Under the pieces are notes generated by a model, which saw only the letters and a list, made by a program, of their open reading frames with translations, did not search any database and was not told the origin of the DNA. The position numbers and the translations under genes are program-made. Below, in pieces: positions 9,205 through 55,346 of a stretch of DNA of 64,000 nt. The stretch's first letter is position 1. Each line of letters starts with the position of its first letter. The stretch lies in the NCBI RefSeq assembly GCF_037201915.1, contig NZ_CP147505.1:2976001-3040000 (forward strand), in the 5' to 3' direction. Source of the stretch: Haloplanus sp. CK5-1 (GTDB lineage: Archaea > Halobacteriota > Halobacteria > Halobacteriales > Haloferacaceae).

Positions 9205-9249
9205 CCCGTATCCCTTTTTCGCCGCAGCATAAGTATCGGTCGGCCTGCC

Positions 9250-10086
9250 CTACCGGATCTTCCGGACACCGCTGACGTCGAACCCGCCCTCGTGAATCTC
9301 CGTCTCGAACCGGATGATGTTCTCCGCTTCGAGCCGCGAGAGGACCCCCCGGAACTCCTTGACGAACATGGTGCGAGCGCGCTTGGAACCGCCGCTCTCC
9401 CACTCGAACTGGAGGGTCCCCGAGGTGGCGTCCATCAGGTGGCCAAGCGACGTCGCCTCCAGTGTCTCCTCCTGGGCCAACAGGAGGATGAGTCCACCCC
9501 ACTGGTAGGCGACCTTCTGGATGCCCTTCATGACGAGGGCGATGTCACTCCACGTCATGTCGTCGCTGACGGCGGCGACGAGGTCGGTCACCGAGTCGAC
9601 GATGACGAGGTTCCCCGGCGCGTTCTCGCCGAGGTAGTCGCCGAGGGCGCTCAGTGCGCTCTCCCGGCGCTCGCGCGTCGCTAGATCCTCGACCGTCCGG
9701 GTCGCCCCAGCGTACCACTCCCGCGGGATCGGGCTCAGTTGGAAGTACTCGGCCGAGAGATCGCGAAACTGGACGTGGTCGACGGCCGTGTTCGCCAGAT
9801 CCTCGTCCATCGTGTACGACATCTCGCGTTCGAGGTGGTCACGGCCGGTCGTGAAAGAGACGTAGTGTATCTCCTCGGGCGGCGTCGCAGACGACTCCAC
9901 ATCGCCGTAGTGGAGGTCGAACGCGTCGCGGTCGCCGTAGTACAGGCCGTTCATCGCGGCGCTCGTGTAGGCGAACTCGCGGGCGCCCGCACCGGCCTCG
10001 CCGACCAGCAGGACGACGCTCCCCGGTGGCGCACCGCCGCCGACGATGGAATCGAGGCGGGCGATACCGAAGGGGATGCGTGCCAT
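9250..10086 (-). CDS. KaiC/RecA-like ATPase family protein (HTR-like)
   Basis: This 278-residue RecA-superfamily protein is of the haloarchaeal KaiC-like/HTR type. The N terminus IARLDSIVGGGAPPGSVVLL is the typical lead-in to Walker A, but the P-loop reads GEAGAGAREF, with Arg in place of the invariant Lys-Ser/Thr. A Walker B-like LVIVDSV lies near residue 170. Nucleotide binding may be weakened, so a regulatory rather than energy-converting role is possible. The gene lies 24 bp downstream of the GHMP-family gene in the same direction. Confidence 0.8.
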   Translation of the reverse strand: MARIPFGIARLDSIVGGGAPPGSVVLLVGEAGAGAREFAYTSAAMNGLYYGDRDAFDLHYGDVESSATPPEEIHYVSFTTGRDHLEREMSYTMDEDLANTAVDHVQFRDLSAEYFQLSPIPREWYAGATRTVEDLATRERRESALSALGDYLGENAPGNLVIVDSVTDLVAAVSDDMTWSDIALVMKGIQKVAYQWGGLILLLAQEETLEATSLGHLMDATSGTLQFEWESGGSKRARTMFVKEFRGVLSRLEAENIIRFETEIHEGGFDVSGVRKIR

Positions 10087-10110
10087 GGGCGGCGTAGGAC
10101 CGTCGGCGAG

Positions 10111-11106
10111 TTAGTCGTTGCGGCGCGGGTCGCCGTCGACCGTCGCACCGCGGTTGTGACCCTCGGCGACTAGGACCCGGCCGTCGACGCCCGCGGCGTC
10201 CAAGGCGTCGCGTCCCGCCTCCCGTGCCGCCGCCGACCGCGAGGCATCGGTGACGCCGTACACCGACGGCCCCCAGGAGGACTGCCCCGCGCCGTAGACG
10301 GCCGGGTCCTCGTCGAGGGCGGCGACGAGTTCGCCGGCCGGCGGGCGGTAGACCCCACCCTGTTCGTCGGCGTACCACGTCCCGTTGAGGCGGCCGACCT
10401 CCGCGACGGCCGCCCCGAAGCGTTCGGCCGATCCCTCGGTGATCGCCGGGAGGACACGCCGGGCGATGACGCCGGCGAGACGGTCACTGGGTGACGGGGA
10501 CGCGGTTTCGACAACCGAGCGCATGCTTCGGTCCTCGGCGTCGCCGCTCGGTCCCGTGGGGGAGTCGGGCACGACGACGAGAAAGCGCCAGTCCTCGGGG
10601 ATGGGGTGACGCGCGGCGACCGGCGGCACCGACCACCGACCGAGCGCGGGCCGATCGGTCGTGAACCGCGCGGTCGGGTGGCCGGCATCGAGGACGAATC
10701 CGCCGTCCTCGAAGGTGGCGACGCCGACACCGGAGCGGCCGCCCCGACCCAACTCCGGTGCGAGGCGTCGGACGTCGACCGAGCGGTCGTGGGCGCGCGC
10801 GACGGCGACGAGCGTCGCGAGTGCCAACTGCGTCCCGCTCCCGAGGCCGACGTGCCGGGGGAAGGAGCCGTCGACGGTCACGTCCGCGCCGTCGACGTCG
10901 AGGTGGTCGACTGCCCGTTGCGCGTAGTCGCGGACGGTCGGATTGTCACAGGTCACGCCCCCGTCGGGGGTCGCGGCGACGCTGACCCGCGGGCGGTCGA
11001 GACCAACGCCCAGACTCCCGTAGAGGCGTTCGCGGGCCAGGCTCAGGTTACAGAAGCCGAAGTGGAGGCGGGCGTACGTGGTGACGACGGCGCGGTCGCG
11101 GGACAT
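10111..11106 (-). CDS. beta-ribofuranosylaminobenzene 5'-phosphate synthase-like GHMP family protein
   Basis: This 331-residue member of the GHMP kinase superfamily resembles beta-RFAP synthase (start TTYARLHFGFCNLSLARERLYGSLGVGL). That enzyme condenses PRPP with p-hydroxybenzoate or pABA in tetrahydromethanopterin-type pterin biosynthesis. The GHMP glycine loop is GLGSGTQLALA (about residue 92), and GRGGRSGVGVATFE and QSSWGPSVYG are further conserved-looking Gly-rich segments. Its true substrate in haloarchaea, which lack methanogenesis, is uncertain. It is followed closely by the KaiC-like gene. Confidence 0.82.
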   Translation of the reverse strand: MSRDRAVVTTYARLHFGFCNLSLARERLYGSLGVGLDRPRVSVAATPDGGVTCDNPTVRDYAQRAVDHLDVDGADVTVDGSFPRHVGLGSGTQLALATLVAVARAHDRSVDVRRLAPELGRGGRSGVGVATFEDGGFVLDAGHPTARFTTDRPALGRWSVPPVAARHPIPEDWRFLVVVPDSPTGPSGDAEDRSMRSVVETASPSPSDRLAGVIARRVLPAITEGSAERFGAAVAEVGRLNGTWYADEQGGVYRPPAGELVAALDEDPAVYGAGQSSWGPSVYGVTDASRSAAAREAGRDALDAAGVDGRVLVAEGHNRGATVDGDPRRND

Positions 11107-11125
11107 GGATCGGTGGCGACGCCGC

Positions 11126-11449
11126 TCAGCCCGACCCCGGGAGCGGACAGAGACTGGCGGTGAAGACGGCGACGTCGTCGGTGTCGTTGCGCGCCCCGTG
11201 GACCACGCCGCGGTCGTGGTAGACGACGCCGGGGGCGTCGACCGCCTCCTCGTCGTCGCCCTGGATCACGGTCACCGTCCCGCGGAGGACGTGAAAGACG
11301 TTCGTGCTGTCGGCGTGTTCGTGTGGTTCCAATCGAGCACCCGGCCCCAAGGCGAAGGCCTTCACCAGTACGTCGTCGCCGACGGCGAGTTCGGCCGTCA
11401 CCACTTCCTCGGGGGCCGGATCGAGCGTCTCCAGTCGGTCGAGCGTCAT
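11126..11449 (-). CDS. cupin domain protein
   Basis: The 107-residue product is a single small cupin. Motif 1 (PGARLEPHEHADSTNVFHVLRGTV) supplies two His and a Glu/His pattern typical of the metal site, and motif 2 (DRGVVHGARND) supplies another His. Such cupins bind a divalent metal and act as small isomerases, dioxygenases or sensors; the substrate cannot be inferred. It is 19 bp upstream of the beta-RFAP synthase-like gene in the same direction. Confidence 0.82.
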   Translation of the reverse strand: MTLDRLETLDPAPEEVVTAELAVGDDVLVKAFALGPGARLEPHEHADSTNVFHVLRGTVTVIQGDDEEAVDAPGVVYHDRGVVHGARNDTDDVAVFTASLCPLPGSG

Positions 11450-11552
11450 GGCGGCTAGTCGACCGCCTGCGTCTTAATCGGTGCGCTTCCGGGAGAAAAC
11501 GGAGGAACGAGCGGTCGTCGATCGGAGGGCCGTCGCGTGGGGGAGTCAGGGG

Positions 11553-12224
11553 TTATCGACCGGCCGGCCCGCCGTCACCGAAGATGGAGCCGAGGAGGGT
11601 CGAGACGCGGTCGGGAACGACGGCGGGGAGCGAGGACGGGGGACCCTGTCGGTCCGCCGTCTCTGCCGCGTCGGCCGCACCCGCGTCGGCGGACGCGCTG
11701 CCGTCGGCGGCGTTCTCGTCACGTTCGTCGTCCTCGATTTCTTCGGCCTCCTCGTCACGTTCGTCCTCGGCCTCCTCGTCACGTTCGTCCTCGGCCTCCT
11801 CGTCACGTTCGTCCTCGGCCTCCTCGTCACGTTCGTCCTCGGCCTCCTCGTCACGTTCGTCTTCGTCCTCCATCTCGAACTCGCTCCCTTCGAGGACGAG
11901 CGAGCCGTCGTCGACCGCGTACTCGCTTTCGAGTTCGACGCTCGCCGTCTCGGTGCTCACCTCGAACTCGTCGTCGGGGCGCTCGAAGGCGACGGTCCCG
12001 TCCGCGTCGGTCTCGCCGACCGCCTCACCGTCGACCTCGACGGTCGCGTTCTCGACGCCGTCGTCGTCCTCGGTCACGGTGACCGTGACGACACCGTCGT
12101 TCAACTGTGCGTCCATGGCGTACGCGCCGTCGCCTGCGTCGTGCGTGCTCCCGACCGCCGCGCCGACGCCGGTGGCGGCCACCAGCACGGCCAGCAGGAT
12201 CGCGAGCGGTTTCGTGACGGACAT
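11553..12224 (-). CDS. secreted or membrane-anchored protein with acidic DERDEEAE repeats
   Basis: The start at 12224 gives a 223-residue protein with a Sec-type signal peptide (MSVTKPLAILLAVLVAATGVGAAVG). A beta-rich domain (about residues 30-120) resembles a carboxypeptidase-regulatory/Ig-like surface fold (VTVTEDDDGVENATVEVDG). Five exact eight-residue repeats DERDEEAE and an acidic Ala/Asp tail follow. It is probably exposed on the cell surface. The upstream Met at 12257 would put eleven polar residues before the signal and is less likely. Confidence 0.72.
   Translation of the reverse strand: MSVTKPLAILLAVLVAATGVGAAVGSTHDAGDGAYAMDAQLNDGVVTVTVTEDDDGVENATVEVDGEAVGETDADGTVAFERPDDEFEVSTETASVELESEYAVDDGSLVLEGSEFEMEDEDERDEEAEDERDEEAEDERDEEAEDERDEEAEDERDEEAEEIEDDERDENAADGSASADAGAADAAETADRQGPPSSLPAVVPDRVSTLLGSIFGDGGPAGR
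11745..11864 (-). repeat. 24-bp coding tandem repeat (5 units)
   Basis: Five consecutive 24-bp units (GGCCTCCTCGTCACGTTCGT plus CCTC) encode DERDEEAE on the minus strand. There are no spacers, so this is a protein-repeat array and not a CRISPR. Confidence 0.9.
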
Positions 12225-12332
12225 TGCACTCGACGGCTGGAACGGGAGCCACTTCAACCGGGGAGACGGTGAAGTCGAATTTCGGAGTTTCGAAGCCTAT
12301 AAACCCGAATTAACCGGGATTAACCGATCGAA

Positions 12333-12656
12333 TCAGGCGAGTTCCTCGGCGACCATGTCGACGCCGAACAGGTCGGGATCCATCGCGAGGTCGGTCTGCC
12401 CGCGCGCGAACTCGGGGAGGGAGTCGTGGCTGTAGACGACGATCTGGACGTCGGAGTTGCGCTCTTTGACCACCGAGATGGCAGTCGCCTCGTCCAGATC
12501 CGTGAGGACGAACAGGTCGGCCTCGGCGACGTCCGCGTCGTCGAGGACCGAAGCGGTGAGAATCCCGTCGACGCGTTCGACGTCGATGCCCTCGGCCTCC
12601 AGCGCCGCCCCCAGTCCCTCGTGGTCCGGGCCGGCGAGGATCGCTCGGGTCGTCAT
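12333..12656 (-). CDS. small conserved haloarchaeal protein downstream of guaA
   Basis: This 107-residue protein starts [19 protein letters not shown] and has alternating beta/alpha segments ([25 protein letters not shown]) that suggest a small Rossmann-like or receiver-like fold without obvious catalytic residues. Its ATG overlaps the guaA stop (ATGA), so it is the last gene of the pyrG-guaA operon and is probably linked to nucleotide metabolism. No specific function can be given. Confidence 0.75.
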
Positions 12657-13569
12657 TCGTACTCGATGGTCGCGGGCGGTTTGTGGGTGACGTCGTAGAC
12701 GACCCGCGCGACGTTCTCGTTCTCGCCGGTGATGCGGCTCTGGATGCGCTGGAGCGTCTCCCACGGGAGTTCCTGTGCACGCGCGGTCATCCCGTCCCGG
12801 CTCTCGACCGACCGGACGGAGACGACCCAGCCGTGGACACGGTTGTCGCCTTTGACACCCGTCGCCTTGCCGATGACGGCCGCGAACGCCTGCCACGGAT
12901 CGTGCTCCTCGACCTCCTCCTCGACGACGTGACACGCCTCGCGGGCCACCGCCAACTTCTCTTCGGTCACCTCGCCGATGATGCGGACGGCGAGACCGGG
13001 ACCGGGGAACGGCATCCGCTCGGAGACCACCTCCTCCAGATCCAGCGCCCGAGCCACCTCCCGAACCTCGTCCTTGTAGAGATCGCGGACGGGTTCGACG
13101 ATGCCCTCGAAGTCGATCACCTCGGGGAGGCCACCGACGTTGTGGTGGGATTTGATGTTGCCCTCGCTCTCGATGCGGTCGGGGTAGATCGTTCCTTGCA
13201 CGAGGTAGTCGGCGTCGGCCTCGCGGGCCTCGCGTTCGAACTCCCGGATGAACCCCTCGCCGATGACGTGGCGCTTCTCCTCGGGGTCGGTGACGCCCTC
13301 GAGGGCGTCGAGGAATCGGTCCTGCGCGTCGACGACTCGTAGGCTGTCCATGAACGCGAACGTCTCGCGGATGCCCTCCGTCTCGCCTTTCCGCATCAGC
13401 CCGGTGTCGACGTAGACGGGGGTGAGGCGGTCGCCGATCGCGCGGTACGCGAGTGCGGCCGCGACCGACGAGTCGACGCCGCCGGAGAGCGCGATGATGG
13501 CGTTCTCGTCGCCGACAGCGTCGGCGATCTCCTCGGTCGCCTCCGCGATGAATTCGTCGGCGTCGACCA

Positions 13570-13570
<1 letters not shown>
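12653..13570 (-). CDS. guaA: GMP synthase, ATP-PPase (synthetase) subunit
   Basis: The 305-residue product is the stand-alone ATP pyrophosphatase subunit of archaeal two-subunit GMP synthase, which aminates XMP to GMP using ammonia from a separate glutaminase. The PP-loop [12 protein letters not shown] is at about residue 30, GLMRKGE and HHNVGGLPE are conserved substrate segments, and the dimerisation domain ends [23 protein letters not shown]. The start at 13570 follows from the one-base overlap with the pyrG stop. It is the middle gene of a pyrG-guaA-small protein operon. Confidence 0.93.
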
Positions 13571-15279
<1,709 letters not shown>

Positions 15280-15331
15280 TCACACGGGGCCACATCGCAG
15301 GATTCGAGTCGGCAGCGACCGTCGGCCCCGT

Positions 15332-16129
15332 ATGGATCTGCCCGAACTCGGTCTCGGGACGTACCGACTGACCGACCCCGACGACTGCGCGACCGCCGTC
15401 GAGACGGCCCTCGGGACGGGCTACCGTCACGTCGACACCGCCGAGTACTACGGGAACGAGGCGGCGGTGGGCGAGGGCATCGCGTCGAGTCCCGTCGACC
15501 GCGACGACGTGTTCCTCGCGACGAAGGTGTGGCGGGACCGTCTCGGTCGCGACGCGTTCCCGGAGAGCGCACGCGAGCGGGTCGACGCTCTCGGCGTCGA
15601 CGCCGTCGACCTGCTGTACGTCCACTGGCCGCTGGGGACCTACGACCCCGACGAGACGCTCCCGGCCCTGCTGGAGGCGCGCGAGCGAGGGCTGACCCGA
15701 CACGTGGGTCTCAGCAACTTCACGCCGCCCCTCTTGGACGAGGCCATCGACCGACTCGGCGAACCGCCGGCCGCCCACCAAGTCGAGATGCACCCCCTTT
15801 GCCAGCAGGACGACCTCCGGGCACACGCCCGCCGCCACGACTACCCGCTGGTGGCGTACGCCCCCATCGCGCGCAACGCCGTCGCAGACGTGCCCGAGAT
15901 CCGCGAGGTCGCCGAGAAACACGACGCCACGCCCGCACAGGTGTCGTTGGCGTGGGCGCTCAACAAGGAATCCGTGGCGGTCATCCCCAAGTCCGGGACG
16001 CCCGAACACATCCGCGAGAACTACCGGGCCATGGAGCTGGATCTGGACGACGAGGACGTGGCACGCATCGACGGGATCACACGGGAGGAACGGGTCGTCG
16101 ATCCGGGGGACGCACCGTGGAACCGCTGA
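15332..16129 (+). CDS. aldo/keto reductase
   Basis: This 265-residue NAD(P)H-dependent aldo/keto reductase is a complete TIM barrel. It has the catalytic Asp-Tyr (GYRHVDTAEYYGNE), the Lys in FLATKVWRDR, and the His in LLYVHWPLG. The C-terminal cofactor-binding segment is VIPKSGTPEHIRENYRA. The start at 15332 is chosen because the protein then begins directly with the first strand MDLPELGLGTYR. The physiological substrate is unknown. Confidence 0.9.
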   Translation: MDLPELGLGTYRLTDPDDCATAVETALGTGYRHVDTAEYYGNEAAVGEGIASSPVDRDDVFLATKVWRDRLGRDAFPESARERVDALGVDAVDLLYVHWPLGTYDPDETLPALLEARERGLTRHVGLSNFTPPLLDEAIDRLGEPPAAHQVEMHPLCQQDDLRAHARRHDYPLVAYAPIARNAVADVPEIREVAEKHDATPAQVSLAWALNKESVAVIPKSGTPEHIRENYRAMELDLDDEDVARIDGITREERVVDPGDAPWNR

Positions 16130-16214
16130 CCGGTCCGACCCCGTTCGGGCCGACGACGCCGCGAGCGGCCGGTCACTTCGTCATACTTTTCACTGCCCGC
16201 GCCAAGGTTCTGGC

Positions 16215-17051
16215 ATGAGCGCGGACGACAAATACCCCGAAGAGAGCGGGCGACGGCGGTTCGTCAAGGGCGTCGTGGGCGGGTCGGCGCTCGCCGGCGT
16301 CGGCGCACTCGGGACGGTCACCGTCAACAGCGCGACTGCCTCGCCGGGTGCCGGTGGGGGGGCGACGCAGGCGTGGGCCATCGAGAACACGGCCGGCCCT
16401 GCGCCACGCGGGATGCCACAGATCCCGCTCGAAGTCGACGACGAGGGCTACATCAGGGGAATCTGGCCGGACGTCGAGACCACGCTCCAAGGCGGGGTCG
16501 AGATCCGGATCGCCGAGATGGACCTCGGCGGGACGACCTACTCCTCGGAGTGGTTCCAGTACTGTGGCGTCGAAGGGTACCAAGGCATCCAGCCGGGGTA
16601 CGAGAGTGACAACTACTTCAGATCGGACTCGGCACCTCCCTACGACTGGCAGTCGTCGAGCAAGGAACAGGGCGATCGCTTCCACGTCGACGACTTCAGC
16701 GACTACACCGAGTGGGGCAACGGCATCGGCGACGCCGGCGCCGGGAAACCAGCCACGGGCACGTGGCGGTCACAGGACGCCGACGACGTGATCCCGATCC
16801 AGGTGATCCGGAGCAAGCGCGTCGAACAGGCCGCCCAGAACGACGAGTGGTTGCAGGCGAGCACCGACCAGGGGTTCATCGCGTGGCTCAACAAGTGTAC
16901 GCACTTCTGCTGTGTCCCCGGCTACAAACAGACGGAGGACGTGGCTCGCTTCGGCGACCCCAACGGGGTCTACTGCCAGTGCCACCAGTCGGTGTACGAT
17001 CCCTTCTCGGTCGTCCAGACGCTGTTCACCGCCCGCCCACGGCCGGACTGA
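16215..17051 (+). CDS. Rieske iron-sulfur protein of a cytochrome bc-type complex
   Basis: The 278-residue protein has an N-terminal twin-arginine anchor (GRRRFVKGVVGGSALAGVGAL) and a C-terminal Rieske domain. Two ligand pairs, CTH in NKCTHFCCVPGYK and CQCH in YCQCHQSVYDPF, bind the 2Fe-2S cluster. It would sit on the outer face of the membrane and transfer electrons from quinol. No cytochrome b gene is adjacent in this window, so it may serve a complex encoded elsewhere. Haloarchaeal Rieske proteins of this type are similarly long because of an insertion before the cluster. Confidence 0.88.
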   Translation: MSADDKYPEESGRRRFVKGVVGGSALAGVGALGTVTVNSATASPGAGGGATQAWAIENTAGPAPRGMPQIPLEVDDEGYIRGIWPDVETTLQGGVEIRIAEMDLGGTTYSSEWFQYCGVEGYQGIQPGYESDNYFRSDSAPPYDWQSSSKEQGDRFHVDDFSDYTEWGNGIGDAGAGKPATGTWRSQDADDVIPIQVIRSKRVEQAAQNDEWLQASTDQGFIAWLNKCTHFCCVPGYKQTEDVARFGDPNGVYCQCHQSVYDPFSVVQTLFTARPRPD

Positions 17052-17079
17052 TCGAGCCGGCACCCACTACCCGCTTCCC

Positions 17080-17370
17080 TCACTCGGTCGCGCCACGCCC
17101 GCCGCTCACCGGCGGGAACAGCGCGAGTTCGTCGCTCGCCGCAACCGTCGTCTCCAGTCCGTCGGCCGCGTGGACGTTCTCGCCGTTCCGGAGGACGTTG
17201 ATGTGGTCCGCGACCGCTCCCGAGTCGTCGAGGACGCGTTCCCGGAGCGACGGCTGTGCCTCGAACAGCGCGTCGAGTGCGTCGCCGACCGTCGCTCCGT
17301 CGTCGACGTCGACCGATATCTCCCGGTCGCCGGCCACCTCCGCGAGGTCAGCGAACAACTTCCACTCCAT
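17080..17370 (-). CDS. samp1: ubiquitin-like SAMP1/MoaD family protein with a C-terminal extension
   Basis: This 96-residue beta-grasp protein begins MEWKLFADLAEVAG and closely resembles the haloarchaeal ubiquitin-like modifier SAMP1, which is adenylated at its C-terminal diglycine by UbaA for protein conjugation and for molybdopterin sulfur transfer. The conserved end LALFPPVSGG is present (Gly90-Gly91), but five more residues, RGATE, follow before the stop codon. Mature SAMP1 must end in GG, so this version would need proteolytic trimming or is not conjugated. The start at 17370 fits the SAMP1 N terminus. Confidence 0.85.
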   Translation of the reverse strand: MEWKLFADLAEVAGDREISVDVDDGATVGDALDALFEAQPSLRERVLDDSGAVADHINVLRNGENVHAADGLETTVAASDELALFPPVSGGRGATE

Positions 17371-17393
17371 AGGGTACTCTCCCGGCCCGTCGG

Positions 17394-18290
17394 TCAAATG
17401 GGTTGCGTCTCGGACGGCCGACTCCGGGCGCCGAGTCGACGGTACGCCTCGGCGCGACAGACGACGTACACCTCGTCGCCGGCGACGAGCGTCCGGTCGT
17501 GGGGGAGCGTGTCGACAGATCCGTCCTCGCCCTCGACGGCGACGACGGTGGCGTCGGCGTCCCGCGCCCGGTCGCTGCGGAGGCTCACGACGTGCCCGCG
17601 ATAGCTCCCCGCCCCGGTCGAGAGGGTCACCTCGTCGCCGCGGGCGGTTCCGGTGGGGAGGAGGGCACGGACCGAGACGCCGCGCTTGCCGGCTGGGATG
17701 CGCTTCGAGAGACCGCCGGGCGGCGGCGCGGCACTCACCGTCGCCCGCGCGCGTTCGTCGAGCGAGACGGACACGTCCGTCAAGTCGAACTCGGTGCGGA
17801 GGCGGTCGGCAACCCGTGACTCCAGTTCGACTACCGGCACGTCCGCGGGGACGGGCGGGTGCCCCTCCATGTCGCCGACGTCGCCGGCGACGGTGACACG
17901 GGCCTGTCCGCGGCCGCCGACCAGTTCCACCACGTCCGTCGAGAGGGTGCGGTCGGTGAGTTTGCGGAGCGAGAGTTTGCGCGGGAAGTCGGCGACCATC
18001 TTGTCTCCGACGCTGTGGGCGTACAGCGAGAGCATCAACACGACGATGAGGGCGACGCTCAGCCGGATCTGATTCGACGACCGGGTGAACGTCGGATCGT
18101 TCAGCGCCATCAGGCCACCGTTGACGCCGGCGATGGCCACCGCGAGGACGACGACACCGAACGCGGGGACGGTGACGCCGGTGACGTACTTGAACAGGAA
18201 GCCCAAGCCGTAGGAGACGAGCGCCGGAATGATACCCGTCAACACGCCGAGGTAGACGCCGAGTAGGAGTTCGACGGGGACCGAGGCCAT
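17394..18290 (-). CDS. membrane protein with TrkA_C-like regulatory domain
   Basis: This 298-residue protein has three N-terminal hydrophobic segments (about residues 1-95: LLLGVYLGVLTGIIPALV, VPAFGVVVLAVAIAGV, LSVALIVVLMLSLYA). The soluble C-terminal part ends in a TrkA_C/RCK-type beta-rich domain (SVDTLPHDRTLVAGDEVYVV). It looks like a regulatory component of ion transport, probably potassium related. It is 55 bp downstream of the HPP/USP gene in the same direction, which suggests co-transcription. Confidence 0.75.
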   Translation of the reverse strand: MASVPVELLLGVYLGVLTGIIPALVSYGLGFLFKYVTGVTVPAFGVVVLAVAIAGVNGGLMALNDPTFTRSSNQIRLSVALIVVLMLSLYAHSVGDKMVADFPRKLSLRKLTDRTLSTDVVELVGGRGQARVTVAGDVGDMEGHPPVPADVPVVELESRVADRLRTEFDLTDVSVSLDERARATVSAAPPPGGLSKRIPAGKRGVSVRALLPTGTARGDEVTLSTGAGSYRGHVVSLRSDRARDADATVVAVEGEDGSVDTLPHDRTLVAGDEVYVVCRAEAYRRLGARSRPSETQPI

Positions 18291-39083: not shown

Positions 39084-39947
39084 TCAGGACCACTCTGGAT
39101 CTTCGGCGAGCACATCAGGCACATGCCCCAACTCCCGGTGAGCACGCTCGCGTAAAGTCTCGGCCAGTTCTTGGTTGAACTGTCGACCGCGTCGACCGTG
39201 GTGCACTTCTCGATGGCAGTTTGGACAGAGAGCGATCACCGCGTCAGGATGGTCGGGGCCGCCATCGCCGAGCCGAAAGACGTGGTGAACCTCCAGGTAC
39301 TCACCGCCAGAGGCGGTGACAAACGGCGCCTCGTCGCCACATCCTTGACAGACACCATCGGCCCACTCAAGTGCATAGTTTCGAACCGCCTGTGAGGTGG
39401 CGTAACTCGGGCCGCCGCTGGTCGTCTGAGCCGGGCTTTCGTCTGCGGCATTCTCTGCGGCCACCCTTATTGATCTGCCGGAAACTGTCTCTTTTTCACC
39501 GTCAGAACCGTCGCTGAGCTTTCGGAGGCGGAAGCGGATTTCATCCCGAAGCTTCCCATCAGCGCCAGCTCGCTCCTCGAAGTGGTGGTCGACGTACTCG
39601 TACTCCCCGAGGTATACGACAAACGTGTCGTCGACGGATGACTCCTCAAAGAGATGGACCTCGTTTCCATCCTCTGCGTGGTCCCGGAGGCCCGCGTTTG
39701 CCCGACCGTTCGTCGTCGACCTATCAAAGGTCTGGTTACCGGTTCGACCCTGTCCAGAGTATACGAACTCCGTCTCAGAGACGAACTCGTCTTTGTAGCC
39801 GTGCTCCTCGCCGCTGTCTCCAGTGAAGACGAAAACGCAGGGTACCTGAGCGGAGACGGATATCCCACACTGTGGATTACCACCAAACTGGTCGTGGATA
39901 CGCTTCCGTTTGATCCGCTGCCCGACGTGGAAGGGGACATTCGACAT
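39084..39947 (-). CDS. HNH endonuclease with ScoMcrA-like modified-DNA reader domain
   Basis: This 287-residue protein has an N-terminal domain of the SRA/ScoMcrA type (IHDQFGGNPQCGISVSAQ, CVFVFTGDSGEEHGYKDEF, FVYSGQGRTGNQTF). Such domains bind modified bases in type IV restriction enzymes. The C-terminal HNH nuclease has CQGCGDEAPF, EVHHVFRLGDGGPDHPDAV and CPNCHREVHH, giving a complete zinc-stabilised beta-beta-alpha-metal site. It would cleave invading DNA bearing modified cytosine or another modification. It sits alone, 3.7 kb from the McrBC operon on the same element. Confidence 0.82.
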   Translation of the reverse strand: MSNVPFHVGQRIKRKRIHDQFGGNPQCGISVSAQVPCVFVFTGDSGEEHGYKDEFVSETEFVYSGQGRTGNQTFDRSTTNGRANAGLRDHAEDGNEVHLFEESSVDDTFVVYLGEYEYVDHHFEERAGADGKLRDEIRFRLRKLSDGSDGEKETVSGRSIRVAAENAADESPAQTTSGGPSYATSQAVRNYALEWADGVCQGCGDEAPFVTASGGEYLEVHHVFRLGDGGPDHPDAVIALCPNCHREVHHGRRGRQFNQELAETLRERAHRELGHVPDVLAEDPEWS

Positions 39948-40152
39948 GCAACCTATAATACTCAATCACCCACTTCTTTCTTGTCGGCAAAGACGGCCAA
40001 TTATGGCAGCAGACTGGAATTTCTCTGACGCGCCAGCGATCCTCATCGATACGTCTACGCCTGTCCAGAGGCAGGACACCTACAGAGTAAGTGAACCGCC
40101 CTCTTCGGCAAACAGGTTAGCACGATTCCAGTGCTGAATACAGAGGGTGTAT

Positions 40153-41858: not shown

Positions 41859-42476
41859 TCAAACTTTGATCAGGTGGTCGTAGATACGCTCGGTGGTCTG
41901 GATCGAGCGATGTCGAAGGCGGTTTCGGACATCGTACAGCGTGTTTTCGTCCTCGGTGTTCATCATTCGATAGGCGACACTGTGCCGCAGGGCGTGTGGC
42001 GTCACGTCCCCAGCATCTCCCCTAGAGCCATCGACGCGGTAGGGACGGACGCCCGCCATCTCCGCGACCTTGTGTAGCATATTCCGAACTCCCTGGGTAC
42101 TGATCCGGTCGGACGATCGGCCCGGGAACAACGCAGGCGATTCTTTCCACCTGCTGTTCAGGTACGACGAGACGAGTCGAGTAACGTCCGCGGACAGTTC
42201 CATCGTCACTGGACCGGGGCTGTTGTCGTTCGGATAGTCCTTCTGGATGTGGCCGGGGAGATAGAGCTCACTGTTCCCCTCTCGTAACATCTCGACATCG
42301 ACGTCGACGAGTTCACCCACGCGGAGGCCAGTGTCGTAAGTGAGTGCGATGATCGTCTCGTTTCGCTGCTGGAGATAGGGAGCCCCACCCTCGTAACATG
42401 CCGTACGTAGCGCGTCGACTTGGTCGGGAGTTAGCCACACCTTTGCTCGAACTTTGGAGTTTGCATTTTCGGGCAT
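41859..42476 (-). CDS. tyrosine recombinase (catalytic-domain-only integrase)
   Basis: This 205-residue protein carries all tyrosine recombinase residues: Arg in YDTGLRVGELVDVD, Lys in the GHIQKDYP hairpin region, His-x-x-Arg in THALRHSVAYRM, His in LRHRSIQTT and the nucleophile Tyr in RIYDHLIKV. It lacks the usual N-terminal SAM-like core-binding domain. It may act with a partner, or resolve multimers or invert DNA within the element. Its position in mid-element suggests it is not the integrase for the tRNA-Pro site. Confidence 0.85.
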   Translation of the reverse strand: MPENANSKVRAKVWLTPDQVDALRTACYEGGAPYLQQRNETIIALTYDTGLRVGELVDVDVEMLREGNSELYLPGHIQKDYPNDNSPGPVTMELSADVTRLVSSYLNSRWKESPALFPGRSSDRISTQGVRNMLHKVAEMAGVRPYRVDGSRGDAGDVTPHALRHSVAYRMMNTEDENTLYDVRNRLRHRSIQTTERIYDHLIKV

Positions 42477-42820: not shown

Positions 42821-44053
42821 ATGAGCGACTCTTCGGATGACGATTACTCCCTTGAGCAGGCGAAGGAAGATATCGGGATCCTCCGGCGTGTCGAGAGTGA
42901 GACTGTCGAGGCAATCAGGAATACCGAAGAGGAAGCAGTTATCGAATATCTCATCAAGGAACAACAGCTGGACATCGCCCACGAAGGGAAACGCGGACTG
43001 GGGAATGTTAGACGTGCTGTCCTCGAATCAAATGCTGCATCCGACGAACTCAAGCGACTAGTGAGTCTTCGGGGCGATGAAACCCCAAAGGACATCTTGG
43101 TGCCACGGGAGGTCAAGCGCAACGCACAGGTCGCTCTCGAAGCTGGGAAGCCAGTCGTCCTATACGGCCCGACAGGTACTGGGAAGACAACCTTCGCGAA
43201 GCAACTTGCGCGTGAAACCTGCATCGGCTATACACTCAACACCGCTACTCCGTCCTGGACCCCTTCAGACATTATTGGGGGGATCAGTCCAGACTACTCT
43301 GGCGATTCATTGAGTTATCGTACGAAACTCGGCTGTGTATCGGAGGCTGTACAGCGTGCTCGCCGATTCGACGGCGAGTACGGGGTCATCCTCGACGAGA
43401 TTACCCGCGCAGACATTTCGAAAATATTCGGGCCGCTCTACACAGCTATTGAAAACCCCCATCAAACGATCTTCGAGACTGACGATGGTGAAACCATCGA
43501 GCTCGACGAACGGGTGAATATCATCTGCACGATGAACATGTCCGATAGGACGGTAAACGAGCTCGACAACGCTATTACTCGCCGCTTTGCGATGATCGAG
43601 CTCGACGAATACGAGGAAGACAAACGCCGCCAGCTGTTCAAAGACTGGATCAACACCCACATTAGTGGCAATTCGGATCTCGACGAAAGCGAGATTCTCA
43701 GGCTCTTCGAACGCGACTATCAGGGGATCAATCACGGCAATGAGTCGACATCCCAAGGGTCAATTATGCGCTTCGGTCCGATGCATTACCGGGATATCGC
43801 CATCTTCCTCGGTGTTGGCTGTCGCGAGGGTGGCGCATACGAGCACGACCAGACCGAAGCGGTCGGCCAAGCATTCCAGACTTATATCGTCCCACGTCTG
43901 CTGAACTCGGCAGCATTCCCGCAGGTCGAACGTATAGCCGAGCACTATCGAGCACTGAACGGTGAGTTCGATGAATTCGACCTTTCGCCCGCTGCTGAAC
44001 TTGCAGAACGAGAACTTGAGCAAGAGCGCCGCCAGATGGGATCCTACGAGTAA
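42821..44053 (+). CDS. mcrB: McrB-like AAA+ GTPase
   Basis: The 410-residue protein has a helical N-terminal part (about 100 residues) without a recognisable methyl-DNA reader and an McrB-type AAA+ domain. Walker A is LYGPTGTGKTTFAKQL (about residue 114), Walker B is GVILDEITRADISK (about 188), and the family signature CTMNMSDRTVNELDNAITRRF follows (about 228-248). McrB motors translocate DNA and activate the McrC nuclease upon recognition of modified DNA. It overlaps mcrC by one base (TAATG). The missing standard reader suggests recognition resides in the N-terminal helices or in another subunit. Confidence 0.88.
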   Translation: MSDSSDDDYSLEQAKEDIGILRRVESETVEAIRNTEEEAVIEYLIKEQQLDIAHEGKRGLGNVRRAVLESNAASDELKRLVSLRGDETPKDILVPREVKRNAQVALEAGKPVVLYGPTGTGKTTFAKQLARETCIGYTLNTATPSWTPSDIIGGISPDYSGDSLSYRTKLGCVSEAVQRARRFDGEYGVILDEITRADISKIFGPLYTAIENPHQTIFETDDGETIELDERVNIICTMNMSDRTVNELDNAITRRFAMIELDEYEEDKRRQLFKDWINTHISGNSDLDESEILRLFERDYQGINHGNESTSQGSIMRFGPMHYRDIAIFLGVGCREGGAYEHDQTEAVGQAFQTYIVPRLLNSAAFPQVERIAEHYRALNGEFDEFDLSPAAELAERELEQERRQMGSYE

Positions 44054-45813
44054 TGAGTACCGTCGACGAAGTGTATGAATTCGGGCAAGACACCTTCAAC
44101 GTCCCCGAGCGGGGAGAAATCCGGATAGAGGGGTGTCCGTCCAGCATCGCGGACCAGCTTCGTCGCGCATCATTCACACAGGAAAGCCCCGACGTCTTCA
44201 CGAAGAGTCAGGAATCCCTTGGTTCCGACCAGGAGTATGACGTCGTCACGGTAACTGTCGACGGCGAGAACGACGAGACTCTACACGTTGAGGCGACCGA
44301 CATCATCGGCGTCGTGAGCTTGACCCCATCTTCGAAAATCCAGGTCGACCCCAAAATCGAGTGGGAGTATATTTTCGATATGCTCCTTGCGATCTACGAC
44401 CAGAACCGCTCGATCGAGTATCACGGAATCCCGCTTCAGGATTTCCTCTCGGACGATATCGACCTTGACGACGTTTTCGTCGTACTGGCAATCAACTATC
44501 TCGACGGCTTGGAGGAAATCGAACGACATGGATTCATCCGTGACCTCGTCATTCGTCGTGTCAATAGCCTGAATGGCCGGGGTGAAATCGATGTCGAGCA
44601 GACGCTCCTGAACCACGCACGCGGAAACCTCAAACCCCACTGGATCCGCAACGAAATCGAACATAACAACGCTGCGAACTCGTTGCTCCACTATGCAGGA
44701 AAGACCCTCCTCCGACTGTTTCAGCAGAAATCGTCCGAGCGCGATCACCCGGCCTATGACCGTATCTTCTCGGAAGTACACCGAGAAGTCGAACGCTTGG
44801 AGGATATGGGAGTCAACAGCAGTCTGGACCGGATGGACGAGTATCGTCGAATTTCGCTGGGGGATCTCCCGAAGCAGCGCCGGTACTACCAGAAAGCGTT
44901 CGACGTCTCGAAGGCCATTATGTCGTCGTCGCTTGGACAGCAGCTTCGGGAAGGACCCCGTGAGTTGGTGGTTGACTACGTCCTCAACATGGAATCGTTG
45001 TTCGAGCAGTACTCGCAGGTCGTCATCGAGCGCAAGCTCGATTACGTGAAGTCCTATGACCATCTCGGTGAGTTGGACGACGTAACGCCCGTTCGGTCGC
45101 CGTCAGTCAATCCCTTCGAAGACGAAAACGAGATCTATCATCAGCCGGATCACGCCCTCCAAGAGGCTGAGGAGACTATCGCAATCCTCGACTCGAAATA
45201 CTACGCTGAGGGCCACGATCCAGTCAAGGAGTCGCCGTCTCGATCCCGGCTGTTCAGTTATGCCTACTTACTCCACGCTGACCATCTGGGCTTTCTCTGT
45301 CCCCTGCTGCCGCCGCGACGACGACGTGTTGTCCAAACCGGGGCAGAGCTTCAAATCATCTCGCCAGATGGGGAGTTCACGCTCGATGGGTACGACGATG
45401 CCGTCCACGAATACCTGCACGATGTCCTCGTGGGCGACTACCCAGAACTTGAAGCGTTCCGCGCCGTGACGCAGAACCGACTCTGTCTGGACGGCGCTGA
45501 CGAGGATGATCTCTGCGAAGCGAAGTCGATGAGTGGTCCGTTCGCGTTCAAGGATGCACGAGATTTCTCGCTCCGTGTTGTCAAGGCCGCAGCTGACGAG
45601 CACTCGTGGGATGTCCGAAATCGGTACGATCTTGAACAGGACGGTGACTGGACGCGCGAACAGATTGAAACCCGGTGTGGCCGCCGGTACGAGCATGCAA
45701 CAACCTGTATTCCCGTGTTCTGTCGAGATGATGGCCAAGAGTGGATCGACCTGTACTTCTTCCAGAACGGTACTGGCCAGGTCGAAAAAGAGGGTCCTCT
45801 GAAACTGCTTTAG
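44053..45813 (+). CDS. mcrC: McrC-like restriction component with PD-(D/E)xK nuclease
   Basis: This 586-residue protein has an N-terminal beta domain that would contact McrB (residues about 1-110, ending VVSLTPSSKIQVDPKIEW) and helices (RLFQQKSSERDHPAYDRI). The PD-(D/E)xK core is at about 361-382 (HQPDHALQEAEETIAILDSKYYAEG, with Asp and the DSK motif). It then continues for over 200 residues beyond the usual McrC end, including FAFKDARDFSLRV and a Cys-containing tail. It is longer than typical McrC (about 350-450). It is translated together with mcrB and the third gene. Confidence 0.85.
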   Translation: MSTVDEVYEFGQDTFNVPERGEIRIEGCPSSIADQLRRASFTQESPDVFTKSQESLGSDQEYDVVTVTVDGENDETLHVEATDIIGVVSLTPSSKIQVDPKIEWEYIFDMLLAIYDQNRSIEYHGIPLQDFLSDDIDLDDVFVVLAINYLDGLEEIERHGFIRDLVIRRVNSLNGRGEIDVEQTLLNHARGNLKPHWIRNEIEHNNAANSLLHYAGKTLLRLFQQKSSERDHPAYDRIFSEVHREVERLEDMGVNSSLDRMDEYRRISLGDLPKQRRYYQKAFDVSKAIMSSSLGQQLREGPRELVVDYVLNMESLFEQYSQVVIERKLDYVKSYDHLGELDDVTPVRSPSVNPFEDENEIYHQPDHALQEAEETIAILDSKYYAEGHDPVKESPSRSRLFSYAYLLHADHLGFLCPLLPPRRRRVVQTGAELQIISPDGEFTLDGYDDAVHEYLHDVLVGDYPELEAFRAVTQNRLCLDGADEDDLCEAKSMSGPFAFKDARDFSLRVVKAAADEHSWDVRNRYDLEQDGDWTREQIETRCGRRYEHATTCIPVFCRDDGQEWIDLYFFQNGTGQVEKEGPLKLL

Positions 45814-45819
45814 ATAATA

Positions 45820-46458
45820 ATGTACCGAACACCGTATCAGTGGACGACGGATCGAGGACTCACTCACATCCTCTACGACAATCATCAACCCCCAAGCGGG
45901 GGGTTCGGGTGGACGAGCCTCTGCGAGGAGTGGCAACTCCCCATCGAAGGCGAACACCTCGAACTCGATGAAGATGTCACCGCGTCGTCTACCACGTGTG
46001 AACAGTGCCGAGAACAACTCGATCGCTCGCATGTCGACCATTCGGACGACGACTGCGCTTGCTTACATGGTTGTGTGGTCAAGTTCCGCCGTAGCGGAGA
46101 CGGGGACATAATCCGAGCACGTCGGCTCTGTCGAGGGGGTTCAGTGCATCACGATATTGCGTTCGAACCGACGTCGTTCACAGGCAATCTCTACGACCAC
46201 GTCGATGCCGTGTGTGAGGACTGCTGGCAGGCCTACGTCAGTCACCAGTGGAGTGGCGACGCTGAGGGTGGGGAACTTCGGGTCGACGTTTGGACGGACG
46301 AGGGAACGAAAACGTACTACGCGGCCTCCGTTGAAGCCGTAAACGCCGGCCTCGAAGCCAGACTTCGTCTGACGAGTGAGAACGACCTCAAATTAGAGGT
46401 TCCCCGCGAGAAAATCGATTCGGTTGCCCTGACACCCGCTCGGCGCGTCGATTACTGA
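45820..46458 (+). CDS. unrecognised Cys-rich third gene of the McrBC operon
   Basis: The 212-residue protein starts 6 nt after mcrC. Its motifs include CEQCREQLDRSH and CACLHGCVV (about residues 65-90), CRGG and CEDCWQAY (about 105-130), compatible with one or two zinc sites, then a beta-rich C-terminal half with a basic tail. No family is recognised. The tight spacing implies it works with McrBC, perhaps as a target reader or specificity factor; that is inference. Confidence 0.65.
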   Translation: MYRTPYQWTTDRGLTHILYDNHQPPSGGFGWTSLCEEWQLPIEGEHLELDEDVTASSTTCEQCREQLDRSHVDHSDDDCACLHGCVVKFRRSGDGDIIRARRLCRGGSVHHDIAFEPTSFTGNLYDHVDAVCEDCWQAYVSHQWSGDAEGGELRVDVWTDEGTKTYYAASVEAVNAGLEARLRLTSENDLKLEVPREKIDSVALTPARRVDY

Positions 46459-46478: not shown

Positions 46479-46862
46479 TCAGAACGGTGCGACGAGCCAC
46501 TCTCCCCCTTCCTTTCGGTCAAGTTGCGGCCCGAAGACCTCCTGAAGCGGATAGAGTTCGTCGTCGTACCGGAGATCGTAGGTCTTCCCACGTCGGTGGA
46601 ATGACCCTTGGACGACAAACTGCACGGTCGGTGTCTGGTATTCAAGGTCGTTCGCTCGGCGGTCCATCGCCCGTGCGAGGTCGGCTGCCTGCCCGCCGTC
46701 TTCGAAGGCTACACCGAGGCCAACGACACTGACCGTCTCGGGCACGTCGTCGTCTTCCAGACAGTCGATGAACTCGTCAACCGGTATCTGGTGGTCGAAC
46801 GTGTCGTACGCTCCGTCAATGACGATATTGTATCGGCCGGGAATCTTCCCAGGACCTGCCAT
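46479..46862 (-). CDS. hypothetical protein
   Basis: This 127-residue protein (MAGPGKIPGRYNIVIDGAYD) has alternating strands and helices (VSVVGLGVAFEDGGQAADLARAM) and the conserved-looking end EGGEWLVAPF. It is convergent with the McrBC operon, 20 bp from the end of the third gene. No family is recognised. Its neighbourhood suggests membership of the defence cargo. Confidence 0.6.
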   Translation of the reverse strand: MAGPGKIPGRYNIVIDGAYDTFDHQIPVDEFIDCLEDDDVPETVSVVGLGVAFEDGGQAADLARAMDRRANDLEYQTPTVQFVVQGSFHRRGKTYDLRYDDELYPLQEVFGPQLDRKEGGEWLVAPF

Positions 46863-49364: not shown

Positions 49365-50015
49365 ATGTCAGATCTCGGGCGATGGGTCATATGGGGTCTT
49401 CTTCCATCACTGATCGGTGGGCTTCTTCTCAATACTGTCGTCCCCTTCGGCTCAATCAACAGCGATGTCTTCAACGTAGTGCTGACGGACCCCATACTCC
49501 GAGTCGGTGCGTCAACTGTCGTACTACTCGCCCCCGTGTACTTCGGCGTGAGCTACATCATTAGGCTCGTCCAGTCTCTCATAGACCGGCGACGAGAAAT
49601 TAAGAAAAGCAACTCTCCGAGCGTCTACAGTAGCACGTCAAAGCCGAGTAAGCTAACGTGGTACGGCGTCGTGCGACAGTACGGTGCCGACTGGTACGTG
49701 GCCTTCGGCGAACCCCGCCGTGGCAGTACCAAGTACGCATACCTCGAGAAGGGGCCATGTTGCCCGAACTGCCAGACCGAAATGGTTCATCGGAACAAGA
49801 CACGACTCATCGTATTGAAGAAACGAGTATGGTTGTGTCCGGAGTGCGAGACGGTCGTTGAACGGCCCAAAGAGTTGCTATTCGAAGAAGAACGCGGAGT
49901 GGAGAACATAGTCGAGAAACACATAACGGCTGCCCTCTCTACTGACGATCCTGAAGAGTACATCGACTCAATTGATGCCCTCGATACGGGACAATGGGGG
50001 AGAGGCCTTCCTTGA
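49365..50015 (+). CDS. membrane protein with zinc ribbon
   Basis: The 216-residue protein begins MSDLGRWVIWGLLPSLIGGLL with two transmembrane helices (to about residue 70) and a basic linker. A beta domain (WYGVVRQYGADWYVAFGEPR) leads to a zinc ribbon (CCPNCQ, then WLCPECET) and a helical acidic tail. The ATG at 49365 follows the tRNA fragment by 43 nt. It may be a membrane-tethered nucleic-acid-binding protein; no family is recognised. Confidence 0.6.
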   Translation: MSDLGRWVIWGLLPSLIGGLLLNTVVPFGSINSDVFNVVLTDPILRVGASTVVLLAPVYFGVSYIIRLVQSLIDRRREIKKSNSPSVYSSTSKPSKLTWYGVVRQYGADWYVAFGEPRRGSTKYAYLEKGPCCPNCQTEMVHRNKTRLIVLKKRVWLCPECETVVERPKELLFEEERGVENIVEKHITAALSTDDPEEYIDSIDALDTGQWGRGLP

Positions 50016-53949: not shown

Positions 53950-54279
53950 ATGCGAACCGCGAGTACCACGGGACGAATGTCCCGCATGATCCGAGAGGGA
54001 CCGAGCGGAGAAAGACCTGACGACGACTGTGTCGTCTGTGGAGACCCAGCCGACGGGATCGACGCCGGGCGCGACGGCAACCCGCCCGTCTGTCGACGGT
54101 GCGTGAGGATCCGCTTCGACGGCGGAGTCGTCGAGAGCGCGAAGTATCACGCAGTGCGTTCGGACTGCAACTTCGGGGAACTCGAAGACGATCAACACCG
54201 CGCGGCGCAAGCGGTCGACGAACACGAGAGCGACGAGCCGCCGCACGCCGTGCACTTCGAGGAGGTGGCTGAGCGATGA
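53950..54279 (+). CDS. zinc-finger protein coupled to the integrase
   Basis: The product has up to 109 residues (an ATG at 53977 would give 100). The zinc-binding motif DCVVCGDPADGIDAG with PPVCRRCVRIRF is a classic CxxC-CxxC ribbon. The rest is acidic and helical. Its stop overlaps the integrase start by four bases (ATGA), so it is probably an accessory of the integrase, such as a directionality factor; this role is inference. Confidence 0.7.
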   Translation: MRTASTTGRMSRMIREGPSGERPDDDCVVCGDPADGIDAGRDGNPPVCRRCVRIRFDGGVVESAKYHAVRSDCNFGELEDDQHRAAQAVDEHESDEPPHAVHFEEVAER

Positions 54280-55346
54280 GATTCCAAATGCGAACAGACG
54301 GCGGTCCGTCCGACCTCGACGTCGACGATGCAGTGACCCGGTGGCTCGGTCGACTCCGTCTCGACCACGCCGATGCGACGGTCGAATCGTACCGGCGACG
54401 TCTCTTGCACTTCCTCGATTGGTGCGACGAGCACGACATCGACACTGTCGGCGAGGTGACGGCGTGGGACATCGACGAGTTCGACATTCATCGGCGGGAG
54501 GAAGGCGTGAAGTCGATCAGCCTCAACAACGAGTTGACGGCCCTCCGGCTGTTCCTCCGGTACTGTGAGCGCGTCAGCCTCGTCGGCGGTGGCCTTTCCG
54601 AGACAGTCGAGCCGCCGACTGTCCCAGATGGTGAGGAGACGAACGACGAGTTCCTTGCACCGAACGACGCCCGTGACTTACTCGCCACCTACCGGAACGG
54701 CCGGGACCGATACACGCGCGAGCACGCCGTTCTCGAAGTGGCGTGGTGGATCGGGTGTCGCAAGGGTGGCCTTGCCGCGCTTGACCTCGACGACTACGAT
54801 GCCAACGAGGGGTACGTCCGCTTCCGCCACCGACCGGAAACGGGGACGCCGCTGAAGAACGGTCCCGATGGCGAGCGCGTCGTCGGCCTCGGCGCAGATA
54901 CTCGGGACGCACTCGACGGATACATCGAGCACAGCCGTCACGACACCACCGACGAACACGGCCGTCGTCCGCTGTTCGCGACGGCGCAGGGTCGGGCGCA
55001 CATCAACACCCTCACGAAGTCGGTATACTTCGGGACGGTCCCGTGCCGGTATCGGGAGTGTCCGCACGGCAACGAGCGGCCGACCTGTAAGTTCTACTCC
55101 CGGACGAACGGGTACAAGTGCCCGTCGAGTGTGTCGCCCCACCCCGTCCGGTCGGGGTCGATCATGTGGCAACTCAACTGCGGGATGCGCCCCGACCGCG
55201 TCGCCGAGCGAGTGAACGCGACTGTCGAAGTGATCGAGACGTACTACGACAAGGTGAGCGAACTGGAGGACTACCGCGAGCGGCGAGCAGACGACTTGGA
55301 CAAACTCGGTTTCGACGACTCTCAGGAGAGTGATGACGATGCATGA
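54276..55346 (+). CDS. tyrosine integrase of the tRNA-Pro element
   Basis: This 356-residue integrase has an N-terminal SAM-like domain (AVTRWLGRLRLDHADATVES) and a catalytic domain with Arg in WWIGCRKGGLAALDL and the HPVRSGS box. A Cys-rich insert (CRYRECPHGNERPTCKF) and the C-terminal Tyr in VIETYYDKVSE complete the picture. The Cys-rich insert is common in haloarchaeal integrases. Its end is 30 bp from the right attachment site, as expected for the integrase of this element. Codon use is closer to the host than in the element interior. Confidence 0.9.
   Translation: MRFQMRTDGGPSDLDVDDAVTRWLGRLRLDHADATVESYRRRLLHFLDWCDEHDIDTVGEVTAWDIDEFDIHRREEGVKSISLNNELTALRLFLRYCERVSLVGGGLSETVEPPTVPDGEETNDEFLAPNDARDLLATYRNGRDRYTREHAVLEVAWWIGCRKGGLAALDLDDYDANEGYVRFRHRPETGTPLKNGPDGERVVGLGADTRDALDGYIEHSRHDTTDEHGRRPLFATAQGRAHINTLTKSVYFGTVPCRYRECPHGNERPTCKFYSRTNGYKCPSSVSPHPVRSGSIMWQLNCGMRPDRVAERVNATVEVIETYYDKVSELEDYRERRADDLDKLGFDDSQESDDDA

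What the first reader, a model, noticed from the sequence alone, without database searches (positions are those of the whole stretch)
42821..46458. McrBC operon with an extended McrC and an unknown Cys-rich third subunit
McrB lacks a visible modified-DNA reader, McrC is longer than usual by about 200 residues after its nuclease core, and a 212-residue Cys-rich protein follows after six bases. The reader function may have moved to the third protein or to the McrC tail, giving a variant three-part system. This is the best candidate here for an undescribed defence system.
Basis: partly seen in the sequence, partly recalled or inferred. Interest (0 to 1): 0.65.

Follow-up and report, generated by a model that had tools for sequence, protein, structure and literature searches.

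The report
McrBC arm of decayed archaeal BREX-like system
The two DNA-cutting genes flagged here belong to a larger salt-archaeal virus-defence system (methyltransferase, DUF499 ATPase, helicase, McrBC) that has lost most of its genes in this genome, and the Cys-rich "third subunit" is an optional passenger gene found in only about 1 in 11 copies of the locus.

Summary
The genes are real and at the stated coordinates: reader-less McrB (410 aa), long McrC (586 aa), and a 212-aa Cys-rich protein after 6 bases. The three-part reading fails. This McrC occurs in 69/391 haloarchaeal genomes, the third gene in 10. Only 3 of 43 close McrBC loci (plus the window) carry it beside mcrC, and near-identical relatives hold another gene, or none, there. 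Long McrC and short McrB are constant across the family.

The new result is the context. McrBC is one end of a conserved block: McrB-McrC, a 127-aa convergent protein, DUF1156 DNA methyltransferase, DUF499 ATPase, SNF2 helicase, ~400-aa partner. This is a DUF499-centred BREX-related (Hma-like) system in which McrBC is the conserved nuclease and PglZ was not found. 24 of 28 loci examined over 20 kb have all parts; distances co-vary with McrC. In the window only McrB, McrC, the third gene and the 127-aa gene are intact, with cargo and helicase fragments: a decayed copy. The mechanism (McrBC cutting unmethylated DNA chosen by the other subunits) is inferred. McrBC-methyltransferase association has been noted in outline (eLife 2024), so this is a new variant of a known kind.

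The parts
42821..44053 (+). mcrB: AAA+ GTPase-type motor, 410 aa, no known modified-base reader domain
   Evidence: PF07728 8.8e-18; GPTGTGKT, DE192-193 and NxxD (N239-D242) invariant in 25 relatives; aligns to E. coli McrB from residue 171 on
44053..45813 (+). mcrC: PD-(D/E)xK nuclease subunit, 586 aa
   Evidence: PF10117 3.3e-12; P365 D366, D380 and K382 invariant in 33 relatives; fold match to T. gammatolerans McrC
45433..45810 (+). C-terminal tail of McrC (residues 461-586), family-specific, well folded in the model, function unknown
   Evidence: lies beyond the part aligned to solved McrC; pLDDT ~77-95; in plasmids found only in these McrCs
45820..46458 (+). third gene: 212-aa protein with conserved Cys/His (putative zinc sites); cargo gene of the mcrC slot
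   Evidence: 8-sequence alignment with H16, C35, C60, C63, C104, C132, C135 invariant; next to mcrC in 3 of 43 close loci plus the window
46479..46862 (-). 127-aa convergent gene, conserved core partner of the system
   Evidence: present in 41 of 43 close McrC loci; distance correlation with McrC 0.87; a distant relative adjoins the DUF1156 methyltransferase of a PglZ-type system in the same genome
48267..48887 (-). truncated remnant of a 269-aa cargo gene of complete loci
   Evidence: 96% identical to the G335 copy over residues 63-269 only
49365..50012 (+). homologue of a 216-aa cargo gene of a complete locus (G251)
   Evidence: 78% identity
53123..53248 (-). fragment of the SNF2 helicase gene
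   Evidence: 43-48% identity over 42 residues, E 2e-6

Best explanation
The window holds the surviving end of a haloarchaeal defence system of the DUF499-centred BREX-related (Hma-like) kind whose conserved nuclease is McrBC. SHOWN in relatives: a conserved block McrB, McrC, convergent 127-aa gene, DUF1156 methyltransferase (DPPY), DUF499 ATPase, then SNF2 helicase and a ~400-aa partner, with cargo genes at the junctions; no PglZ found. SHOWN in the window: McrB, McrC, one cargo gene (the 'third subunit') and the 127-aa gene are intact, another cargo gene and a helicase fragment are remnants, and the methyltransferase, ATPase and helicase genes are gone. INFERRED: in complete copies the methyltransferase marks self DNA, DUF499 with the 127-aa protein and the helicase recognises unmarked DNA, and McrBC is recruited to translocate along it and cut it, which would explain why McrB needs no reader. 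INFERRED: the window copy is inactive or only residually active. INFERRED: the third protein is an optional passenger, perhaps a zinc-binding adaptor.
For: Of 43 McrC loci at >=53% identity, 41 have the 127-aa gene and 40 the methyltransferase within ~7.5 kb; 24 of 28 loci with 20-kb flanks have methyltransferase, DUF499, SNF2 and partner. 53 of 57 genomes with the methyltransferase clade (>=60% identity) have this McrC, versus 16 of 334 others, Fisher p 4e-46. Pairwise distances of McrC correlate with DUF499 (0.94), the ~400-aa partner (0.91), 127-aa (0.87), SNF2 (0.77) and methyltransferase (0.73), 0 of 500 permutations each. Families: HmaB 1.4e-35, HmaC 1.4e-18, SNF2; DPPY in all 43 methyltransferases and Walker A in all 32 DUF499 proteins. 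Named record: Haloprofundus halobius plasmid NZ_CP083668 is annotated AAA ATPase, McrC, 3 hypotheticals, DUF1156, ATP-binding, DUF262, DUF499, SNF2, hypothetical. Cargo: McrC of G385 and G039 (third gene) is nearest to that of G164 (nothing there) and then G232/G040 (795-aa gene). PglZ was found only in a separate G000 system. Decay.
Against: No functional data. More distant relatives (34-41% McrC; G150, G210, G375, G286) have the same reader-less McrB and long McrC but no methyltransferase cassette in the stretch fetched, and so does G009 (54%), so the pair can exist alone. McrBC is convergent with, not co-transcribed with, the methyltransferase and ATPase, and could be a very stable passenger. 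Within the 80% clade the methyltransferase tracks McrC poorly (r 0.24). McrB and McrC of the window keep all motifs and low dN/dS, so 'decayed' applies to the locus, not to those two genes. PglZ absence rests on one divergent query plus a motif scan.
Confidence: 0.66

Rival explanations
1. McrBC is an autonomous Type IV (modified-DNA) enzyme that travels with the BREX-related system as a complementary weapon, as GmrSD/BrxU does with BREX; the 126-residue McrC tail is the modified-base reader.
For: Copies without the cassette exist; GmrSD genes, a Type IV family, are common cargo in the same loci; the tail is well folded in the model and matched nothing tested.
Against: The linkage is as tight as that of the core genes and distances co-vary with DUF499, whereas GmrSD is in only 12 of 43 loci. 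A modification-dependent nuclease beside a DNA methyltransferase must avoid cutting self. No reader family was detected.
Confidence: 0.2
2. One reading: a three-part McrBC variant whose modified-DNA reader is the 212-aa Cys-rich protein.
For: The gene follows mcrC by 6 bases in the same direction, here and in three relatives, so it is probably co-transcribed; conserved Cys/His could bind zinc and DNA.
Against: Absent from 40 of 43 close loci; replaced by unrelated genes or nothing in near-identical relatives; solo copies without McrBC in G000, G040, G081 and G117; evolves faster than McrBC.
Confidence: 0.05
3. The window copy is not decayed but a functional minimal McrB-McrC-third-127-aa system that now works without a methyltransferase, perhaps with the PglZ-type DUF499 system elsewhere in the genome.
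For: All four genes are intact with catalytic motifs and low dN/dS; a PglZ-type DUF499 system is at C1:2665-2674 kb of the same genome.
Against: Truncated cargo and helicase fragments flank it; terminal branches of its proteins are long; the other system is from a distant clade (44% methyltransferase, 30-33% DUF499); dS is saturated, so dN/dS says little about recent time.
Confidence: 0.09

Closest known systems
DUF499-centred BREX-related (BR) systems, also called Hma (PMC12839542; PMC8565338; operon noted in archaea in PMC7641849)
   Same: DUF1156 methyltransferase, DUF499 AAA+ ATPase and SWI2/SNF2 helicase as core; extra nuclease genes embedded
   Different: helicase has no fused nuclease, no PglZ found, McrB-McrC is the conserved nuclease pair, helicase perhaps split in two genes; the main text of the BR paper does not mention Mcr
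McrBC systems associated with DNA methyltransferases (census in PMC11090510)
   Same: McrB with NxxD signature, McrC, PglX-like methyltransferase and SWI2/SNF2 proteins in the vicinity are named there
   Different: that paper defers these branches to later work and names neither DUF499 nor haloarchaea in its text; whether our clade lies in its methyltransferase-associated branch was not tested
LlaJI (PMC1459862)
   Same: McrBC-like restriction pair coupled to methyltransferases, restricting unmethylated DNA
   Different: two 5mC methyltransferases, a DNA-binding N-terminal half on the McrB-like subunit, no DUF499 or helicase
Canonical E. coli / T. gammatolerans McrBC
   Same: AAA+ motor plus PD-(D/E)xK nuclease with matching fold
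   Different: no reader on McrB; 126-residue McrC tail; methyltransferase and ATPase partners

Membership tests
Canonical McrBC (Type IV) | McrB-type AAA+ with Walker A/B and NxxD signature | tested here: met
   invariant in 25 relatives; best solved matches are McrB
Canonical McrBC (Type IV) | McrC with PD-(D/E)xK nuclease | tested here: met
   P365 D366, D380, K382 invariant; fold match Z 14.6 to 6ut7_G
Canonical McrBC (Type IV) | modified-base reader domain on McrB | tested here: not met
   ~87 residues before AAA+, no family match; all relatives 407-439 aa
Canonical McrBC (Type IV) | no cognate methyltransferase | tested here: not met
   40 of 43 close loci have a DUF1156 methyltransferase; the window itself has none
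DUF499-centred BR / Hma | methyltransferase + DUF499 + SNF2 helicase core | tested here: met
   in relatives: 24 of 28 loci with 20-kb flanks; in the window itself these genes are missing
BR Type-3 | PglZ in the locus | tested here: inconclusive
   no hit by phmmer with the G000 PglZ and no motif in any McrBC locus, but one divergent query only
BR Type-1 | C-terminal nuclease fused to the helicase | tested here: not met
   SNF2 proteins of 582-664 aa with only helicase domains in two examples scanned
BR Type-2 | HKD nuclease on the helicase and standalone DUF3780 | tested here: inconclusive
   no such Pfam match in the helicases or the 127-aa protein; cargo not all scanned
LlaJI | two 5mC methyltransferases and a DNA-binding McrB N-terminus | tested here: not met
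   DUF1156 methyltransferases with DPPY; reader-less McrB
CoCoNuT | NxD signature and coiled-coil McrB | tested here: not met
   NxxD (NMSD) invariant apart from one residue; short N-terminus
Three-subunit McrBC with Cys-rich protein | third gene conserved with mcrBC | tested here: not met
   3 of 43 close loci plus the window
All of the above | restriction activity and its substrate (modified or unmodified DNA) | not testable with these tools
   needs assays

The most novel reading that the evidence does not exclude
A further type of DUF499-centred BREX-related system, so far seen here only in haloarchaea, in which a reader-less McrBC with its own 126-residue C-terminal tail takes the place of PglZ or of the helicase-fused nuclease as effector and cuts unmethylated DNA on command of the DUF499 complex.
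Probability: 0.48. Interest if true: 0.65.

Novelty: new variant of a known kind. Interest (0 to 1): 0.5.

Why it matters
It would join two families that are usually treated apart: McrBC, known for cutting modified DNA, and BREX-related systems, whose cutting step is poorly understood. A BREX-like core without detectable PglZ, steadily paired with a well-studied nuclease motor, gives a directly testable route to how such systems turn self/non-self discrimination into restriction. It also shows that a gene tight behind mcrC need not be a subunit: this junction is a cargo slot holding several unnamed candidate defence genes.

Tried and rejected
Third gene as subunit: rejected on distribution. 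Searches for the third gene in phage records, IMG/VR viral contigs and GTDB-220 contigs found no relatives (the last two need conserved seed peptides and miss distant copies). Fold of the third protein: AlphaFold mean pLDDT 57, so only a hint of an Sm/SH3-like C-terminal barrel (Hfq Z ~7 over ~62 residues, below the level the tool calls reliable). Sequence match of the third protein to the JMJD2A Tudor region, E 0.6: chance level. Weak hits of the McrC tail region in G270, G211 and G056: the one examined (G270) lies in a cysteine-desulfurase/aminotransferase gene, so chance. PADLOC gave only weak AAA matches to McrB and none to McrC.

Full report
OBSERVATION. Pfam identifies AAA_5 in McrB and PF10117 in McrC; the third protein has no family above threshold in Pfam, NCBIfam or PADLOC. 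McrB starts its AAA+ domain at about residue 90, and the family profile aligns to E. coli McrB only from residue 171, so the classical reader is missing. McrC's catalytic PD..DxK (365-382) is intact.

LENGTH OF McrC. The AlphaFold model (mean pLDDT 80.8) matches T. gammatolerans McrC 6ut7_G over residues 13-459 (Foldseek 2.1e-16; Z 14.6, rmsd 7.7 over 363 residues), while E. coli McrC aligns from about residue 99-110 on. The extra length is therefore ~100 N-terminal residues plus a 126-residue tail (461-586), not 200 residues behind the nuclease. All 54 full-length relatives, down to 33% identity, are 583-628 aa, and their McrBs are 407-439 aa: a family property, not a peculiarity of this locus.

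THIRD GENE. In 391 genomes of the class, McrC relatives occur in 69 and the third protein in 10. It is next to mcrC only in the window, G039, G385 and G123; of 43 close McrC loci fetched, 3 have it. Other loci have at the same junction a 786-795-aa gene, a 381+355-aa pair, other genes, or nothing, in which case the convergent 127-aa gene ends about 10-16 bp from mcrC. On the McrC tree the G385 and G039 proteins are closest to G164 (nothing between mcrC and the 127-aa gene), then G232 and G040 (795-aa gene). Solo copies lie among other genes on plasmids and at C1:2014132-2014764 of this genome. It is cargo. Eight relatives share H16, C35, C60, C63, C104, C132 and C135, which suggests zinc sites; the model is too weak (pLDDT 57) for more than a hint of a C-terminal Sm/SH3-like barrel.

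WHAT IS REALLY CONSERVED. Fetching 14-20 kb around the McrC genes shows a recurrent block: McrB and McrC; convergent to them the 127-aa gene, a ~890-aa DUF1156 methyltransferase and a ~1080-aa DUF499 ATPase; then an SNF2 helicase and a ~400-aa protein on the McrBC strand. In a 55-57% McrC subgroup the methyltransferase gene lies further on and in the opposite direction. Best family matches are HmaB, HmaC and DrmD/HmaA-type SNF2. Of 43 close loci, 41 have the 127-aa gene and 40 the methyltransferase; among the 28 with 20-kb flanks, 27 have methyltransferase and DUF499 and 24 everything. At genome level 53 of 57 genomes with the methyltransferase clade carry this McrC, against 16 of 334 others (p 4e-46). 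Pairwise distances of McrC and the other core proteins correlate (0.73-0.94). The methyltransferase has DPPY in all 43 and DUF499 a Walker A in all 32 examined. The ~400-aa partner has a coiled coil and a weak RapA_C match (E 0.028), so it may be the detached C-terminal part of the BR helicase; this is a guess. A Haloprofundus halobius plasmid is annotated with the same order, including the third gene. In a 375-genome sample of the phylum all 13 genomes with a hit belong to the window's own order.

PLACE AMONG KNOWN SYSTEMS. The core is that of the DUF499-centred BREX-related systems described in 2026 (PMC12839542), earlier named Hma (PMC8565338), with a related operon noted in archaea in 2020 (PMC7641849). 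Their three types use a helicase-fused nuclease, an HKD-helicase with DUF3780, or PglZ. Here the helicases examined carry no nuclease and no PglZ was found in the McrBC loci, whereas a PglZ-type system with a distant relative of the 127-aa gene exists elsewhere in this genome (C1:2665-2674 kb). The main text of that paper does not contain 'Mcr'; its supplements were not available. The 2024 McrB census (PMC11090510) reports branches of McrBC associated with methyltransferases and defers them, so the association in general is not new. LlaJI (PMC1459862) shows that an McrBC-like enzyme can restrict unmethylated DNA when paired with methyltransferases.

STATE OF THE WINDOW COPY. No methyltransferase, DUF499 or intact SNF2 gene of this clade is at the locus; the nearest homologues elsewhere in the genome belong to another system or are broken. 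The flank keeps a truncated 269-aa cargo gene at 96% identity, a homologue of another cargo gene, and a helicase fragment. McrC, McrB and the 127-aa protein have long terminal branches, though McrB and McrC show low dN/dS (0.03-0.05, dS saturated). I take it as a decayed copy with intact McrBC.

MECHANISM. Shown: gene content, intact motifs, linkage, co-variation. Inferred: self DNA is methylated; DUF499, the 127-aa protein and the helicase find unmethylated DNA; McrBC is then engaged to translocate and cut. This would explain a McrB with no reader, and why losing the methyltransferase here was not lethal: without the rest McrBC would not be targeted. Against it: some relatives have McrBC without the cassette, and the tail could be a reader of its own.

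Noticed in passing
window 39084-39965 (-): SRA-HNH protein (HNH 1e-8, SAD_SRA 1.4e-6; PADLOC mREase_IV 1.3e-19): a separate candidate Type IV restriction enzyme about 3 kb from mcrB.
   Followed up: no
window 41859-42476 (-) and 54276-55346 (+): Two tyrosine recombinase/integrase genes bracket the McrBC remnant and its decayed flank, which suggests a recombination-prone island.
   Followed up: partly
L127 (G000 C1:2656001-2676000), 9212-18115: A separate PglZ-type DUF499 system in the same genome: 132-aa relative of the 127-aa gene, DUF1156 methyltransferase, PglZ, DUF499 and a 659-aa protein.
   Followed up: partly
L044 6133-6765 (G000 C1:2014132-2014764): Second copy of the third gene in this genome, 53% identical, with no McrBC in the 14 kb examined.
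   Followed up: partly
L147 and L148 (G000 C1:1489935-1493105): An SNF2 helicase gene of a related system lies in two pieces separated by about 1.4 kb.
   Followed up: no
L124 (G005), 11282-14877: A canonical-looking McrBC (798-aa McrB with AAA at 480-655, 400-aa McrC) lies a few kb from a reader-less McrBC system of the kind described here.
   Followed up: no
L059 3671-6058, L047 7702-8847, L062 3794-4870: Cargo genes of 795, 381 and 358 aa at the mcrC junction match no family in Pfam, NCBIfam or PADLOC and are candidate new defence genes.
   Followed up: no
complete McrBC loci of the 80% identity clade (L045-L072): The methyltransferase tracks McrC much less (r 0.24) than DUF499 does (0.74), as if methyltransferases were swapped between otherwise stable systems.
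   Followed up: partly
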